Shown here: positions 353 to 8,081 of the stretch, one piece after another
How positions within the stretch are numbered: the first letter of the stretch is position 1
Layout: the number at the start of each line of letters is the position of its first letter
NCBI GenBank assembly: GCA_003225315.1
Contig: QHZD01000020.1
Location: 124,001 to 188,000 of the forward strand
DNA length: 64,000 nucleotides
Reading direction: 5' to 3'
From: Acidobacteriota bacterium
Lineage (GTDB): Bacteria > Acidobacteriota > Terriglobia > Acidiferrales > UBA7541
Program-made: the position numbers and the translations under genes
The notes under the pieces: model-generated
The model's input: only the letters and a program-made list of their open reading frames with translations
Told to the model about the DNA's origin: nothing
Databases searched by the model: none

Positions 353-1660
353 CTATTTTCCATTTTCGTGAGGGGTGAGCCAGCCACCGCCGAAGAGAAG
401 GCCAGGGCCAAGCGAAGCCAGGAAAATCGGCCTGCGATCGTCGCGCGGTTGCTTCTCAGCGATCCGCAAAGCTTCATGCAGTGCTGCGCCGCAGGTGGAT
501 GAGCCCAGATTCCCGGAAACCCGCGCGATCGGCGGAAAAGTGCTCGGGGAAACTCCGCACTGCTTCGCGATCAGAGCAACAAGGCGGGGATTCGGTTGGT
601 GCGTGGCAAACCCTCCGACGGAGCCGCGCGGGATGCCGCTGCGCAGCTCGACGGAAGCAAGGACCTTTTCCATGCGCGTGATCGCCGCGCGCGAAAGTGT
701 TTCTCCGTCGAACTGCACTTCGAGGGTGCCGTCCTTCGTATCGCTGACCTGGATGGCCGCGGCGTACTGGCCCGCGCAGCCAAAGAGAAATTCGCCGAGG
801 CGATAGGAGTTCTTGGAATCTTTATGAGCGGTGCTTCGCAAAATAAAAGCGCTGGCGCCGTCGCCGAAGAGTCCGCCGAATTCGCCCGCGACGCGGCCCG
901 GAGTGAGCGTTCGGCTGTGCACATCGGCGGTGACGACCGCGACGGTCTTGGCCTGTCCCGATCCAATCATCGATTGCGCGACGGCAAGGGCGTTGAGCAA
1001 ACCAAGACAAGCGCCTCCGGTGTCCAGCGCGACGCAATTTTCACGGACAAGCAACCGGGAATGCAGCTGGGCCGAGAGCGAAGGATAATTGTGATGCGTT
1101 TCACTGGTCGCGACGATCCAATCCAGATGTTGCGGTCCGCAGGAGGCACCGCGCAACGCTTCCTGCGCCGCTTTCGCCGCAAGCGTCAGCTCATTTTCGT
1201 CTTCGGCAACGTAGGCGAGCGATTCGATGCCGGCGCGCTTGCGAAGTTTCCCTACCGGCATCCCAAACGCGCGATCAACTTCCTCTGACGGAATGACCCG
1301 CGAACCTACCGCAGAAGACGAGGCCGCAAGGATGGCTGTAGCGGAAGAATAATCGAGCCCGCGAGGCGAGACTGGCGGCCTGAGTGCGGCGGGGGTGGAT
1401 TTTGAATCGCGCAACGCCTTCAAGAGAGCGGCGAAGCTTGCCGAGCGTTCATTCAGGTCCGAAGCCAGGTCGGGCGCGCCATTGGCTGTCTCGACGGCGC
1501 GAAGAAAACTCACCCAGCCCATGGAATCCAAGATTCCGGCCTCCACTAGATCCACGTCATCGCCGGGAATCGGAACCGCAGAACCTGCCTCGCGGCGAAA
1601 ACAATCCTCCAGGAGTCGGCGGCGCTTATCTTCAAACTGTGGGATGGAAGACCGTGGCAT
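353..1660 (-). CDS. ACP-like domain fused to a ketoacyl-ACP synthase III (FabH-like)
   Basis: 435 residues. Residues about 8-85 look like an acyl carrier domain: the motif EAGILDSMG places a Ser (about S46) where phosphopantetheine is attached. Residues about 105-430 look like a thiolase-fold KASIII with the full triad: Cys in DTGGACLG (about C218), His in ATHQPNP (about H354) and Asn in SGNLGSS (about N384). Such enzymes condense an acyl starter with malonyl-ACP or move acyl groups; here the carrier is covalently linked. Ordinary FabH is about 320-330 residues, so the extra N-terminus is real. The ATG overlaps the TGA of the upstream gene (TGATG), making it the last gene of a four-gene operon with two DUF488 genes. 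The substrate is unknown. Confidence 0.85.
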   Translation of the reverse strand: MPRSSIPQFEDKRRRLLEDCFRREAGSAVPIPGDDVDLVEAGILDSMGWVSFLRAVETANGAPDLASDLNERSASFAALLKALRDSKSTPAALRPPVSPRGLDYSSATAILAASSSAVGSRVIPSEEVDRAFGMPVGKLRKRAGIESLAYVAEDENELTLAAKAAQEALRGASCGPQHLDWIVATSETHHNYPSLSAQLHSRLLVRENCVALDTGGACLGLLNALAVAQSMIGSGQAKTVAVVTADVHSRTLTPGRVAGEFGGLFGDGASAFILRSTAHKDSKNSYRLGEFLFGCAGQYAAAIQVSDTKDGTLEVQFDGETLSRAAITRMEKVLASVELRSGIPRGSVGGFATHQPNPRLVALIAKQCGVSPSTFPPIARVSGNLGSSTCGAALHEALRIAEKQPRDDRRPIFLASLGPGLLFGGGWLTPHENGK

Positions 1661-2373
1661 CAGAACTCACCGAGCCATTCAGGCCGTGGCAAGGGAAATA
1701 GCGTATCCAGCATCAGCCAGCAATAATCATGATACGGGCGAGTGAGGCCGAGACGTACGAAATGATGCGGGCAGGACATGATCTTGTAATGAAAATGGGA
1801 ATTCAGGAAGCGTTCGAGGCGAGCAACTTGGTTGGCGCCGCGGCTGGGAGCGAGGGCGGCATCCACAAAGCCGCGCCAATCGTGATCCACCACGGGAAGG
1901 TCGCGCAGAACCTCTCCCGAAGGCAGAGCCAGAGTGGCACGAAGCTCATTGGCGCAAAGTTCCAGACGCAAATTTTGTGTTTCGCATCCGCAAATCGAAC
2001 GCTTGGCTTCGCCCGGAATCGCAAAGAGACCGCTGCCGGTCTTGTTTTCGTAAACCCGGCACCCGAACAGATCGGGCAGGGAGCGCGAGACCTCCGCCTT
2101 GCGGAGGTAGGTGACAACTTCGGTTTCGGGAATCGTCGTGGACTTCTGAAAACCGGAAGTGGCCACGCGGTCCTCAACATGGGGGCAGGGCGCGGGAAAC
2201 GGCGTAAGCGCGCAATCCAAAATATCGCAGCGCCGATGCGGGAAACGCAGCCAGCCATGGCCGCAGGAGGGGATGGGGCGGATAGACTGAATGCGATCCT
2301 TTTCGCGCTGGAGCCCGATGACGCAGAAGGCCGGGCCCATGCGCGTAATTTCGGTGATGAGCAATCTGCTCAC
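1660..2373 (-). CDS. putative dual OB-fold protein in a DUF488 operon
   Basis: 237 residues from a GTG start at 2373 that overlaps the preceding TGA (GTGA). This overlap makes it a better start than the longer frame reaching 2556, whose extra N-terminus only shadows the DUF488 gene. The sequence begins MSRLLITEITRMGPAFCVIG. It then has GHGWLRFP, CDILDCALTPF and a PCPHVED stretch, an order that resembles dual-OB proteins (GWIRP, then DIVEI, then PHxEN/D). OB folds usually bind nucleic acid or nucleotides. The assignment rests on recall of a loose family pattern and is tentative. Six or more Cys residues are present. It is co-translated with the DUF488 gene upstream and the ACP-KASIII gene downstream. 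Confidence 0.6.
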   Translation of the reverse strand: MSRLLITEITRMGPAFCVIGLQREKDRIQSIRPIPSCGHGWLRFPHRRCDILDCALTPFPAPCPHVEDRVATSGFQKSTTIPETEVVTYLRKAEVSRSLPDLFGCRVYENKTGSGLFAIPGEAKRSICGCETQNLRLELCANELRATLALPSGEVLRDLPVVDHDWRGFVDAALAPSRGANQVARLERFLNSHFHYKIMSCPHHFVRLGLTRPYHDYCWLMLDTLFPLPRPEWLGEF

Positions 2374-2879
2374 GTGACGACCCCGGCCGGCTTGCGCCGG
2401 GGCTTTGCGGGCTTTTGGGGTGACACAATGAGATGACGAATTTCGACGTCGTTGCCCTGCGCGCGCCAGTAGCCGGCGAGGAGATCGGCGACTAGGCGGC
2501 GATGGCACTTCTCCGGGCCAGGCTCGGAACAAAGAAGAGAGATACTTGGCGGCCACAAAGACGTGTCCAAGCTTGCCGGGATGCCGCGCTCTTTCATCAC
2601 CGCGAGAAAATCTGTTTCATACGAAGGCCAATCTTTCGTGCGGCGATAATTCTTGAGAAGTTCCGGAGGCGGAGCAAGAAGGGGATCATGGAGATACTCG
2701 ATTCCGGCGATTTCTTTCAAAAAGAAAGAGAGGTCCGGGTGCTTGGAGAAACCCGAAAGCTGCCCGCCGCGGTTCTGGCGGATGTCGATGACTTGGCGGA
2801 CGCGGGCATTCGTGAGCAAAGTGAAAAACTCTTCTGCGGTCTTTCCGGTGAAGCCGATGGTGCAGAGGAGCCGGTGCAT
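2370..2879 (-). CDS. DUF488 family protein (second copy)
   Basis: 169 residues. The start chosen is the ATG at 2879, five bases after the stop of the first DUF488 gene; the longer frame to 3161 only shadows that gene. It starts MHRLLCTIGFTGKTAEEF and keeps the DUF488 hallmarks: an N-terminal TIG, a strand with DIRQN, and near the C-terminus LLCSEPGPEKCHRR, matching the family pattern C-x-E-x5-CHR. DUF488 proteins are small (120-190 residues) and of unproven biochemistry; the conserved Cys/His/Arg set suggests a catalytic or ligand site. It is only distantly similar to its neighbour, so the two are diverged paralogues within one operon. Confidence 0.85.
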   Translation of the reverse strand: MHRLLCTIGFTGKTAEEFFTLLTNARVRQVIDIRQNRGGQLSGFSKHPDLSFFLKEIAGIEYLHDPLLAPPPELLKNYRRTKDWPSYETDFLAVMKERGIPASLDTSLWPPSISLLCSEPGPEKCHRRLVADLLAGYWRAQGNDVEIRHLIVSPQKPAKPRRKPAGVVT

Positions 2880-2884
2880 AATTT

Positions 2885-3499
2885 TCAGAAATATTCGGCC
2901 GCTTCGGGAGAAGCGCGGAAGGCGAAGTCCTTCGACTGGAGCGCCAGGGCGTCCCGCAGGGCCGCTTCGCGGCCGGCTACGAAGAGCGAAGTGCTGGTGA
3001 CGTCGTCGAAGCCGCGGAGAACGAGGAGGCGGTCCTCGGCGTCGCTTTGGGATTCGAGCGCACCGCCGCGACGGATGTGGACGGGACTGACTCCCTGTTC
3101 CAGGAGCGCCGGGCAGATCATCAAGAAGCGATGGCATTGCAGGGGATCTTCTTCGGCGCACATCAGGGCAGCGACGCTGGTCCTGGCGAGGGCAAGTGAA
3201 CGCTCGACGCCTACGACGAAATCAGGCGCGCGACGGCGCGCGGCGTAATCCACGAGGCCGTCTTCGCGATAGACGCGCGGATCAGCAGGCCTCCCACCTA
3301 GACTCTCACCGAAGAATTCGTAGCGAATTCCTGCAGAAGCAAGCGCAGCCTCGAGCGGCTCACGATTGAACTGTGGAAAGCGGAAACTAGCGGGCCGGCT
3401 GCGGACGTCGCATAGCGTCTCGATACGATGCTGGGTAAGAACTGCAAGAAAAGGCTCGATTTCAAGATTCGAGTGGCCGATGGTGAAGAGAGGATTCAT
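2885..3499 (-). CDS. DUF488 family protein (first copy)
   Basis: 204 residues. It begins MNPLFTIGHSN, the standard DUF488 N-terminus, followed by CDVRSRPASFRF, YEFFGESLGGRP and a C-terminal ALMCAEEDPLQCHRF that matches the conserved C-x-E-x5-CHR signature. About 40 residues beyond the core (AAEYF end) are not part of the usual domain. It is the first gene of a minus-strand cluster of four with 5-base, overlapping and TGATG junctions. The function of the family is not established. The association with an OB-like protein and an ACP-KASIII fusion is unusual. Confidence 0.9.
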   Translation of the reverse strand: MNPLFTIGHSNLEIEPFLAVLTQHRIETLCDVRSRPASFRFPQFNREPLEAALASAGIRYEFFGESLGGRPADPRVYREDGLVDYAARRRAPDFVVGVERSLALARTSVAALMCAEEDPLQCHRFLMICPALLEQGVSPVHIRRGGALESQSDAEDRLLVLRGFDDVTSTSLFVAGREAALRDALALQSKDFAFRASPEAAEYF

Positions 3500-6124: not shown

Positions 6125-6694
6125 TTACTTGGCCAGATGTTCGAGTTCGGTCACAACGCGGTCGAGTTCGTCGATGAGCGGGCTTGAGCCCGCCTTGCGA
6201 AATACATTGACCAGAGTTCTGTAGTACCAAAGCGTGCCGTCCTTGCGTCCGGTGAAGCGGTTGAAAACGGCATCGCCTTCCACGCGATAGTCGGAGAGAA
6301 TCTCGCGGGCGTTGGCCAGTTTGTCCGCGGCAGAAACAAGCCGAACATCTTCGGGTTCGTGCGCGACCTTCTCGATGTAGGCGCGCTTCCTTTCGCCCCA
6401 TTCGCGTTTTTCACCGGAGACTTCGTAGGAATCCGTGCAGCCATCGACGATGCGCGCGACGCGCTCGCCGAATTTGTCGCGGATTTCGTCGAGGCGCGGG
6501 AGGCCGCCCTGGTCTTCGACCGCGTCATGCAACAGCGCGGCGATGACTTCGTCTTCGCCGCCGCCATGTTGAATGACGATAGCCGCAACACTAAGCAAGT
6601 GGCCGACGTAGGGCTGGCCTTTGCCTTTTCGGCGCTGGTGCAGATGGAGTTCCGCCGCGTAACCAAGCGCTTCCACAAAACGGTTGGTGAGCAC
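6125..6694 (-). CDS. HD-domain phosphohydrolase, SpoT/Mesh1-like
   Basis: 189 residues from a GTG at 6694 (reads MLTNRFVEALGYAAELH). A TTG at 6727 is an alternative; any start further upstream would lie inside the Bax-inhibitor gene. Hallmarks are the first metal His in YVGHLL, the HD pair in ALLHDAVEDQGG, and a later Asp in VSAADKLANA, as in the ppGpp-hydrolase (SpoT-type) HD domain. Likely role: metal-dependent hydrolysis of (p)ppGpp or a related nucleotide in the cytoplasm. It follows the Bax-inhibitor gene closely. No synthetase domain is fused to it; a separate RelA/SpoT synthetase gene lies at 58270. Confidence 0.85.
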   Translation of the reverse strand: MLTNRFVEALGYAAELHLHQRRKGKGQPYVGHLLSVAAIVIQHGGGEDEVIAALLHDAVEDQGGLPRLDEIRDKFGERVARIVDGCTDSYEVSGEKREWGERKRAYIEKVAHEPEDVRLVSAADKLANAREILSDYRVEGDAVFNRFTGRKDGTLWYYRTLVNVFRKAGSSPLIDELDRVVTELEHLAK

Positions 6695-6735
6695 GGGCGC
6701 TTCGATGATGGATTGCGCGCGCGTCAAGTGTTTCG

Positions 6736-7482
6736 TTATCTGCGGCGAGCCTTGGCCAGCAAGCGAAGGATTTCCAGATAGAGCCAAATGAGCGTGACCA
6801 TGAGGCCGAATGCGCCGTACCACTCCATGTACTTCGGCGCCCCGCCCTGGACGCCACTTTCGATCATGTCAAAATCGAGAACCAAATTCAGGGCCGCGAG
6901 GACCACCACAAAGAGGCTGAAGCCGATTCCCACGGCGCCGCTGCCGTTGATCGCCGGGACCTGAATGTGAAAGAAGCCGCCAAGAACCATCTCCACGAGA
7001 TAGAGGAGCGCGATACCGCCCGTGGCGGCAATCACGCCGAGCTTGAAGCCCTGCGTGGCACGAATCATGCCGGTCTTGTAAGCGAGCAGCATTACGAAGA
7101 GCGTGCCGAAAGTGAGGCCAACGGCTTGAATCGCGACGCCTGGATATCGCAGCTCGAAAATGGCGGAGATGCCGCCGAGCGCCAGGCCTTCGAGGAGCGC
7201 ATAGATTGGCGCGGTGAGCGGAGCCCAATTGGGCTTGAAGATCGTAACCAGCGCGACGATGAAGCCGCCGAAAACACCACCCATCATCCACGGGATGGCC
7301 GCTCCCGGGACTGGAGAGTGCGACAAACCCCAGGTCCATGCTGCCGTGGCCACAACGCAGAGCAGGAGAAAGCCCGTCTTGTTGACAGTGCCCTGCAACG
7401 TCATCGCTTCGCCAAAAGCGACCTGGCCCTTGAAGGCTTTCTCATTAAGCGCCGGGTTGGAGGTGCGCATTAGATTCGCCAT
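6736..7482 (-). CDS. Bax inhibitor-1 / YccA family membrane protein
   Basis: 248 residues with about seven hydrophobic segments after a soluble N-terminus (MANLMRTSNPALNEKAF). The late segment YMEWYGAFGLMVTLIWLYLEILRLL is the characteristic BI-1 C-terminus. Family members are inner-membrane proteins linked to Ca2+/H+ leak and to FtsH-dependent proteolysis in some bacteria. A GGGAGA ribosome site precedes the ATG. The HD-domain gene follows on the same strand, so the two may be co-transcribed. Confidence 0.9.
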   Translation of the reverse strand: MANLMRTSNPALNEKAFKGQVAFGEAMTLQGTVNKTGFLLLCVVATAAWTWGLSHSPVPGAAIPWMMGGVFGGFIVALVTIFKPNWAPLTAPIYALLEGLALGGISAIFELRYPGVAIQAVGLTFGTLFVMLLAYKTGMIRATQGFKLGVIAATGGIALLYLVEMVLGGFFHIQVPAINGSGAVGIGFSLFVVVLAALNLVLDFDMIESGVQGGAPKYMEWYGAFGLMVTLIWLYLEILRLLAKARRR

Positions 7483-7571
7483 TTGGTGTCTCCCTGTTAG
7501 ATTGCAAATATCAGTTTACGCTGGCTTGAACCCAAGTTCAAAGTTGGCCGCAGCTCGAATGGGCGGCGCGC

Positions 7572-8081
7572 TCAATTTGCTCTGTCACCGGCGATTTGGC
7601 TTTGGACTTGTTCCCTGAACTTCAGGGGATTCTGGATTTTTTGGAACACTTCGGGCGTCCCGCCGGTGCCGCGCACAATTACCGTTCCGTAGCCTAGGAT
7701 TCTTCCCATGGCGGGCTCGTCCACCACGACACTTTCGATTCTGGAGAGGAGGATTTCCGTGGTGCGGCGTTCCGCAAGGCCGGTCTTTACGATGACTCTC
7801 TTGTTGGTGACAGCCATCTCCGTGATACTGCGCTTCAGCAGACCGATGCAAAAGAGGGTGGCTCCGATGAGGAAACAAATGAGAGCCCCGACATACATGG
7901 CGTCGCGCGAGGGCGCGGCTTTGGCTCCTGCCGGCTTGGAAAACGCCGCGACGAGAAATGTTATTGCGAGCAACTCGAAAACCGCGGCGATGGCAACGTG
8001 CCCCAACATGACAATCCAATGCAGCTTGGTTTGGTATTGGATGGATTCACCCGGAATGAGATGCTTTTCGACGTAGCCCAA
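7572..8081 (-). CDS. membrane protein with bacterial PH-like (bPH2/YdbS-type) domain
   Basis: 169 residues. The TTG start at 8081 is supported by AAGGAG seven bases upstream. The N-terminus (MGYVEKHLIPGESIQYQTK) and two transmembrane segments (about 25-48 and 65-85) are followed by a PH-like region: EMAVTNKRVIVKTGLAERRTTEI, then LLSRIESVVVD and VIVRGTGGTPEVF. Such proteins are membrane-anchored with no assigned enzymatic role. It stands between the Bax-inhibitor gene and tRNA-Glu on the same strand. Confidence 0.85.
   Translation of the reverse strand: MGYVEKHLIPGESIQYQTKLHWIVMLGHVAIAAVFELLAITFLVAAFSKPAGAKAAPSRDAMYVGALICFLIGATLFCIGLLKRSITEMAVTNKRVIVKTGLAERRTTEILLSRIESVVVDEPAMGRILGYGTVIVRGTGGTPEVFQKIQNPLKFREQVQSQIAGDRAN

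What the first reader, a model, noticed from the sequence alone, without database searches (positions are those of the whole stretch)
353..3499. Four-gene operon: two DUF488 proteins, an OB-like protein and an ACP-KASIII fusion
The four genes are joined by a 5-base gap, a GTGA overlap and a TGATG overlap, so they are made together. DUF488 has no proven function, and its coupling to an acyl carrier/ketosynthase is not something I know from described systems. Diverged paralogues keep the same C-x-E-x5-CHR motif. A lipid- or acyl-modifying system, possibly linked to nucleic acid or nucleotide binding, is a possibility (inference).
Basis: partly seen in the sequence, partly recalled or inferred. 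Interest (0 to 1): 0.65.

Follow-up and report, generated by a model that had tools for sequence, protein, structure and literature searches.

The report
DUF488–OB module with acyl-carrier arm
A four-gene unit in soil Acidobacteria joins a three-gene cluster (two DUF488 enzymes and an OB-fold protein), known elsewhere as a candidate phage-defence module, to a fused acyl-carrier/ketosynthase protein, and the carrier part is kept almost only where the rest of the module is kept.

Summary
The four genes are real and tightly coupled (5-base gap, GTGA and TGATG overlaps). The two DUF488 proteins are PADLOC families PDC-M45B and PDC-M45C (E 5.7e-52, 1.6e-45). The 237-residue protein is a highly diverged DuOB (dual OB) protein, the third part of PDC-M45. 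So the core is a variant of an already catalogued but untested candidate defence module. The new part is its fusion to an ACP-KASIII gene. The same four-gene order occurs across the window's genus, in other genera of its family, and in a second family of the class with unrelated flanking genes. In the window's family the KASIII gene sits at one chromosomal place even when the cassette is gone (about nine changes on a tree). It then keeps its Cys-His-Asn triad under purifying selection but has no ACP: ACP is present in 20/20 loci with DuOB and 1/22 without. One genome with a mostly deleted second DUF488 gene has lost exactly the ACP serine region. The ACP therefore looks dedicated to the DUF488/DuOB part. 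My best mechanism is that KASIII loads a beta-ketoacyl group on the ACP and the ACP delivers it to the DUF488/DuOB enzymes acting on nucleic acid or nucleotides. The chemistry and target are inferred.

The parts
2885..3499 (-). DUF488 protein 1 (204 aa), PDC-M45B type; C-x-E-x5-CHR motif at 3128-3160
   Evidence: PF04343 70.9 bits; PADLOC PDC-M45B E 5.7e-52; motif in all complete homologues
2370..2879 (-). DUF488 protein 2 (169 aa), PDC-M45C type; C-x-E-x5-CHR motif at 2499-2531
   Evidence: PF04343 55.4 bits and PF22751 DUF488-N3a 38.4 bits; PADLOC PDC-M45C E 1.6e-45
1660..2373 (-). Diverged dual-OB (DuOB) protein, 237 aa, GTG start; takes the place of PDC-M45A
   Evidence: No Pfam or PADLOC hit alone; profile-profile with canonical DuOB 94-96%; residues 1-93 model as an OB barrel, Z up to 6.8
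353..1660 (-). ACP-KASIII fusion, 435 aa
   Evidence: PF08545 49.1 bits, PF08541 30.2 bits; model pLDDT 73
1391..1660 (-). ACP domain (about residues 1-90) with phosphopantetheine serine S46 at 1523-1525
   Evidence: Carrier proteins in the PDB at E 2.4e-5; D45-S46 invariant; four helices, S46 at the start of the second
356..1348 (-). KASIII domain (residues 105-435); Cys218 at 1007-1009, His354 at 599-601, Asn384 at 509-511
   Evidence: Triad present in all 46 aligned copies
2370..2373 (-). GTGA overlap of the DUF488-2 stop and DuOB start
   Evidence: 4-base overlap also seen in most same-genus relatives
1658..1662 (-). TGATG overlap of the DuOB stop and ACP-KASIII start
   Evidence: 10 of 10 complete same-genus loci

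Best explanation
This is a variant of the candidate module PDC-M45 (DuOB plus two DUF488 proteins) that has taken on a fourth, dedicated component: an acyl-carrier domain fused to a KASIII condensing enzyme. Supported by the data: the four genes are inherited as one tightly coupled unit, and the ACP domain is kept almost only where the DUF488/DuOB part is kept, while KASIII also has a life of its own. Inferred: KASIII uses its Cys-His-Asn triad to condense an acyl primer with malonyl on the fused ACP. The holo-ACP then presents the beta-ketoacyl thioester to the DuOB/DUF488 enzymes. DuOB binds nucleic acid or a nucleotide, and the cysteine-based DUF488 pair acts on it, so the acyl group (or a product made from it) ends up on, or is released with, that substrate.
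For: Module identity: PDC-M45B/C hits; DuOB relation by profile. Canonical M45 triplets lie beside type III CRISPR genes, CBASS and SNF2 genes on plasmids, and a DuOB-RecQ fusion exists: nucleic-acid context. Four-gene unit: same order in about a dozen genomes of the genus, in G489 and (contig-split) G446 of other genera, and in six genomes of a second family with different flanks. Distances of all five domains correlate (same-genus r 0.68-0.87). ACP dedication: ACP in 20/20 loci with DuOB, 1/22 without; about 9 changes on the KASIII tree, at least 7 forced by well-supported branches in the first tree; 6 independent pairs, ACP follows DuOB in 5.5 on average, never opposite. KASIII-only copies keep the triad (26/26), with dN/dS about 0.1 between KASIII-only pairs. 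In L120 the second DUF488 gene is mostly deleted and the ACP has lost its serine region, while KASIII stays open.
Against: No experiment. Delivery of acyl groups to DUF488/DuOB is not shown by any sequence feature. ACP lies between DuOB and KASIII, so one deletion can remove both: part of the co-loss is expected from position alone. KASIII survives without the ACP and cassette in many genomes, so its own job is not the module's. G444 (L139) keeps an ACP-KASIII without the cassette. The DuOB part is below Pfam and PADLOC cut-offs and its second OB is unresolved. Canonical M45 loci in the same phylum have no KASIII nearby, so acyl chemistry is not needed for M45 in general.
Confidence: 0.5

Rival explanations
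1. KASIII is an independent specialised condensing enzyme of these bacteria, and the M45-like cassette is only parked in front of it. The fused ACP serves KASIII alone; ACP goes with the cassette because deletions that start upstream run through it until they hit the selected KASIII domain.
For: KASIII sits at one conserved chromosomal place with or without the cassette, is under purifying selection alone and is distinct from the true FabH of the genome (379.8 bits elsewhere). G444 has ACP-KASIII with no cassette.
Against: The four-gene order recurs in a second family with different flanks. Intermediates keep DUF488-1 or DUF488-2 but not DuOB or ACP (L131, L132, L129). L120 has a separate internal deletion inside the ACP. 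If the ACP served KASIII alone, the many KASIII-only copies should not have lost it.
Confidence: 0.28
2. The whole unit is an anti-phage defence system in which the acyl arm is the effector: on sensing phage nucleic acid through DuOB/DUF488, it makes an acyl product that harms the membrane or modifies phage nucleic acid.
For: PDC-M45 is listed as candidate defence; canonical triplets lie in defence-rich plasmid stretches; frequent loss and decay.
Against: In the window's genus the locus is chromosomal, syntenic and surrounded by housekeeping genes, not an island. The PADLOC listing is as a candidate; no test is known to me. KASIII is kept when the rest is lost.
Confidence: 0.15
3. A lipid or acyl-tailoring metabolic route with no nucleic-acid role: the DUF488 enzymes act as phosphatase- or sulfurtransferase-like enzymes on an acyl product, and the OB protein is a binding subunit.
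For: ACP and KASIII are acyl enzymes; DUF488 chemistry is not proven; OB folds do not always bind nucleic acid.
Against: The same DUF488/DuOB trio occurs without any acyl gene and next to CRISPR, CBASS, SNF2 or fused to RecQ. No other lipid gene is in the unit.
Confidence: 0.07

Closest known systems
PDC-M45 (PADLOC-DB phage-defence candidate: DuOB + two DUF488 proteins)
   Same: Two paired DUF488 genes of types M45B and M45C plus a DuOB-like gene in one operon.
   Different: DuOB is downstream and too diverged for the M45A or PF22557 models; a fourth gene, ACP-KASIII, is translationally coupled; chromosomal and syntenic instead of in mobile defence stretches.
[quoted passage not shown] not held here, recalled from memory)
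   Same: DUF488 domain with the C-x-E-x5-CHR motif; predicted there to act on nucleic-acid ends or nucleotides.
   Different: No acyl-carrier or ketosynthase partner is known to me from that work.
FabH / KASIII
   Same: Cys-His-Asn triad and both Pfam halves.
   Different: Far below the FabH family cut-off (121.3 against 292.1 bits), not the FabH of this genome, N-terminal ACP fusion.
DltC-like and peptidyl carrier proteins
   Same: D-S-[ML] attachment site and carrier fold; best PDB profile matches.
   Different: Fused to a KASIII and kept almost only with DUF488/DuOB.

Membership tests
PDC-M45 (PADLOC) | M45B and M45C DUF488 proteins adjacent | tested here: met
   E 5.7e-52 and 1.6e-45, 5-base gap
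PDC-M45 (PADLOC) | M45A (DuOB) protein matching its model | tested here: not met
   Window protein and 9 relatives: no hit. So it is called M45-like, not a member
PDC-M45 (PADLOC) | Protection against phage | not testable with these tools
   No experiment; the PADLOC entry is itself a candidate
DuOB (PF22557) | Score over the gathering cut-off of 27 bits | tested here: not met
   Window protein 0 hits; relative L138 14.4 bits
DuOB (PF22557) | Profile similarity to confirmed DuOB proteins | tested here: met
   hhalign 94.1% over 199 columns and 96.4% over 114 columns
DuOB (PF22557) | Two OB barrels | tested here: inconclusive
   N-terminal OB barrel, Z up to 6.8 with OB proteins; second half unresolved; mean pLDDT 55.9; Foldseek best hits are HIN domains but weak, E 0.04
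DUF488 (PF04343) | Gathering score and C-x-E-x5-CHR motif | tested here: met
   70.9 and 55.4 bits against 22.2; motif present
KASIII superfamily | Both ACP_syn_III Pfam halves and Cys-His-Asn triad | tested here: met
   49.1 and 30.2 bits over cut-offs 24 and 26.6; triad in 46/46
FabH (TIGR00747) | Family cut-off 292.1 bits | tested here: not met
   121.3 bits; a true FabH is elsewhere at 379.8 bits
Acyl/peptidyl carrier domain (PF00550) | Gathering score 20.8 bits | tested here: not met
   15.2 bits for the window copy; 9 of 13 relatives match weakly
Acyl/peptidyl carrier domain (PF00550) | Attachment serine and four-helix fold | tested here: met
   S46 invariant, helices 6-25, 46-60, 65-68, 76-85; PDB carriers E 2.4e-5

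The most novel reading that the evidence does not exclude
The unit is a new kind of acyl-dependent nucleic-acid or nucleotide modification system: a KASIII builds an acyl group on a dedicated carrier domain, and a DUF488 pair with a dual-OB protein installs it on, or uses it to act upon, nucleic acid or a nucleotide.
Probability: 0.2. Interest if true: 0.88.

Novelty: new variant of a known kind. Interest (0 to 1): 0.6.

Why it matters
DUF488 enzymes are widespread and have no proven biochemical role that I could find. Here evolution gives a handle: a carrier domain that is lost with the DUF488/DuOB part while its fused enzyme stays. That points to an acyl thioester as a candidate co-substrate for one branch of the family and makes DUF488 function testable in vitro with four purified proteins. 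If true it would connect fatty-acid type chemistry with a candidate nucleic-acid defence or repair module.

Tried and rejected
P0003 single-sequence searches found nothing outside the genome; only the alignment and neighbourhood route gave relatives. Viral contigs with DUF488-2: no relative. The DuOB subtype is not found in the rest of the phylum: 2 of 396 genomes, one the own genome and one a weak chance-like hit. PDB sequence search for DUF488: nothing significant, DJ-1 hits at E 0.3 are noise. Papers: 25 mention DUF488, none on this system in its title; no PDC-M45 or PF22557 mention; the Burroughs and Aravind 2023 paper is not held. Promoter scan found nothing above shuffles. I considered that KASIII is simply the housekeeping FabH and rejected it. 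I considered chance adjacency and rejected it because the order recurs in another family with other flanks. L119 and L173 were left out of the ACP count, since the contig ends at or close to the KASIII start.

Full report
Observation. The four genes exist at the stated coordinates on the minus strand, with a 5-base gap, a GTGA overlap and a TGATG overlap. Both DUF488 proteins pass the Pfam cut-off and carry the family motif C-x-E-x5-CHR.

Identity of the first three genes. PADLOC assigns the DUF488 proteins to PDC-M45B and PDC-M45C. The third part of PDC-M45 elsewhere is a DuOB protein, PDC-M45A. The 237-residue window protein has no Pfam or PADLOC hit, nor do its close relatives pass. Its alignment matches confirmed DuOB proteins by profile-profile comparison (94.1% over 199 columns; 96.4% over 114 columns with a wider alignment). 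The AlphaFold model is poor overall (pLDDT 55.9) but residues 1-80 form five strands at usable confidence. The structural neighbours of residues 1-93 are nearly all OB-fold proteins, many of them single-strand DNA binders, with Z up to 6.8. Z under 8 can reflect a common arrangement only, so this supports an OB fold but not a function. The Foldseek list is headed by HIN domains, which to my knowledge are dual-OB DNA binders, at weak E-values. Canonical M45 triplets on plasmids lie next to type III CRISPR genes, CBASS genes or SNF2; one chromosomal relative fuses DuOB to a RecQ-like helicase (the helicase was recognised by eye).

The fourth gene. Residues 105-435 are a KASIII with Cys218, His354 and Asn384, invariant in all 46 aligned copies. 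It is not the FabH of this genome, which is elsewhere with 379.8 bits. Residues 1-90 are a carrier domain: below the PP-binding cut-off alone, but the family profile finds peptidyl and D-alanyl carrier proteins in the PDB (E 2.4e-5). S46 is invariant in the aligned intact copies and sits at the start of the second helix in a four-helix model.

Conservation. A search of 95 genomes of the order found the KASIII in 37 and a protein like the second DUF488 in 20. Around the KASIII the gene order is conserved: HscA-type chaperone, bacterial PH-domain protein, Bax-inhibitor-like protein, HD_4 hydrolase, TonB-type outer membrane protein, then the cassette if present, then KASIII. The full array DUF488-DUF488-DuOB-ACP-KASIII occurs in about a dozen genomes of the genus, in G489 and, split over contigs, in G446, both of other genera. 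A wider search found it in six genomes of a second family of the class, with unrelated flanking genes (in one of the six the contig ends inside the second DUF488 gene). It was not found elsewhere in a sample of the phylum, and canonical M45 loci of the phylum have no KASIII.

Gain and loss. On a KASIII tree of 44 rows the cassette state changes at least 10 times by parsimony, at least 7 times on well-supported branches; with two contig-edge loci removed, 9 times. The ACP is present in 20 of 20 loci with DuOB and in 1 of 22 without. In 6 independent pairs on supported branches ACP goes the same way as DuOB in 5.5 on average and never the other way, sign test median p 0.031. KASIII-only copies keep the triad in 26 of 26; dN/dS between KASIII-only pairs is 0.08-0.14, and 0.26 for the pair of the window with its nearest KASIII-only relative. 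Partial states exist: DUF488-1 with KASIII (L131, L132), DUF488-2 with KASIII (L129), and DUF488-1/2 with a truncated DuOB and no KASIII (L141). In L120 the first DUF488 gene has a frame shift in a run of G (possibly an assembly error), the second is mostly deleted into DuOB, and the ACP has an internal deletion that removes the serine site, while the KASIII frame is open. Distances of the five domains correlate in the complete loci (same-genus r 0.68-0.87), as expected for joint vertical inheritance.

Reading. KASIII has its own selected role. The ACP is different: it is kept almost only with DuOB and the DUF488 pair. Because ACP lies between DuOB and KASIII, single deletions explain part of this, so the statistic alone does not prove function. 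The separate lesion inside the ACP of L120, the partial states, and the recurrence of the four-gene order in another family with other flanks make a functional tie the better reading. I infer that KASIII loads a beta-ketoacyl group on the ACP and that the ACP serves the DUF488/DuOB part, which by its relatives' context acts on nucleic acid or nucleotides. No step of this chemistry is shown. The placing of DUF488 in the rhodanese-phosphatase superfamily, with predicted nucleic-acid-end chemistry, is recalled from Burroughs and Aravind 2023, which could not be read here.

Limits. Most genomes are MAGs with contig breaks, so some absences may be assembly gaps. Taxon names of the G genomes are hidden; named relatives from GTDB are Acidobacteria gp2 / Terriglobia MAGs, so the window is probably from that group (inference).

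Noticed in passing
L144 3276-5033 and L145 5736-7522: Two genomes of the same genus carry the canonical PDC-M45 triplet (DuOB, DUF488, DUF488) at other places, without KASIII; one of them (G425) also has a KASIII-only locus.
   Followed up: partly
L051 7765-10374: A DuOB domain fused to a RecQ-like helicase directly after two DUF488 genes, in a distant genome of the phylum.
   Followed up: partly
L039, L041, L043 (upstream of the DuOB gene): Canonical M45 triplets preceded by a conserved gene of about 410 aa that looks like an AlbA_2/Schlafen-type ATP-binding protein (by eye, not scanned).
   Followed up: no
L178, L179: Canonical M45 triplets on plasmids lie within a few kb of type III CRISPR genes (Csm6, Csx16, Cas1) or of a CBASS operon (cyclase, HORMA).
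   Followed up: no
L120 1500-3450: A decaying copy of the array: frame shift in DUF488-1, DUF488-2 mostly deleted into DuOB, internal ACP deletion removing the serine site, intact KASIII frame.
   Followed up: yes
window 6125-8081: HD_4 hydrolase, Bax-inhibitor-like membrane protein and bacterial PH-domain protein form a conserved co-directional neighbourhood before the array across the genus; the first two genes overlap.
   Followed up: partly
G000:C50:47827-48642 (L165): A third KASIII-like gene in the same genome, 69.9 bits to FabH, not examined.
   Followed up: no
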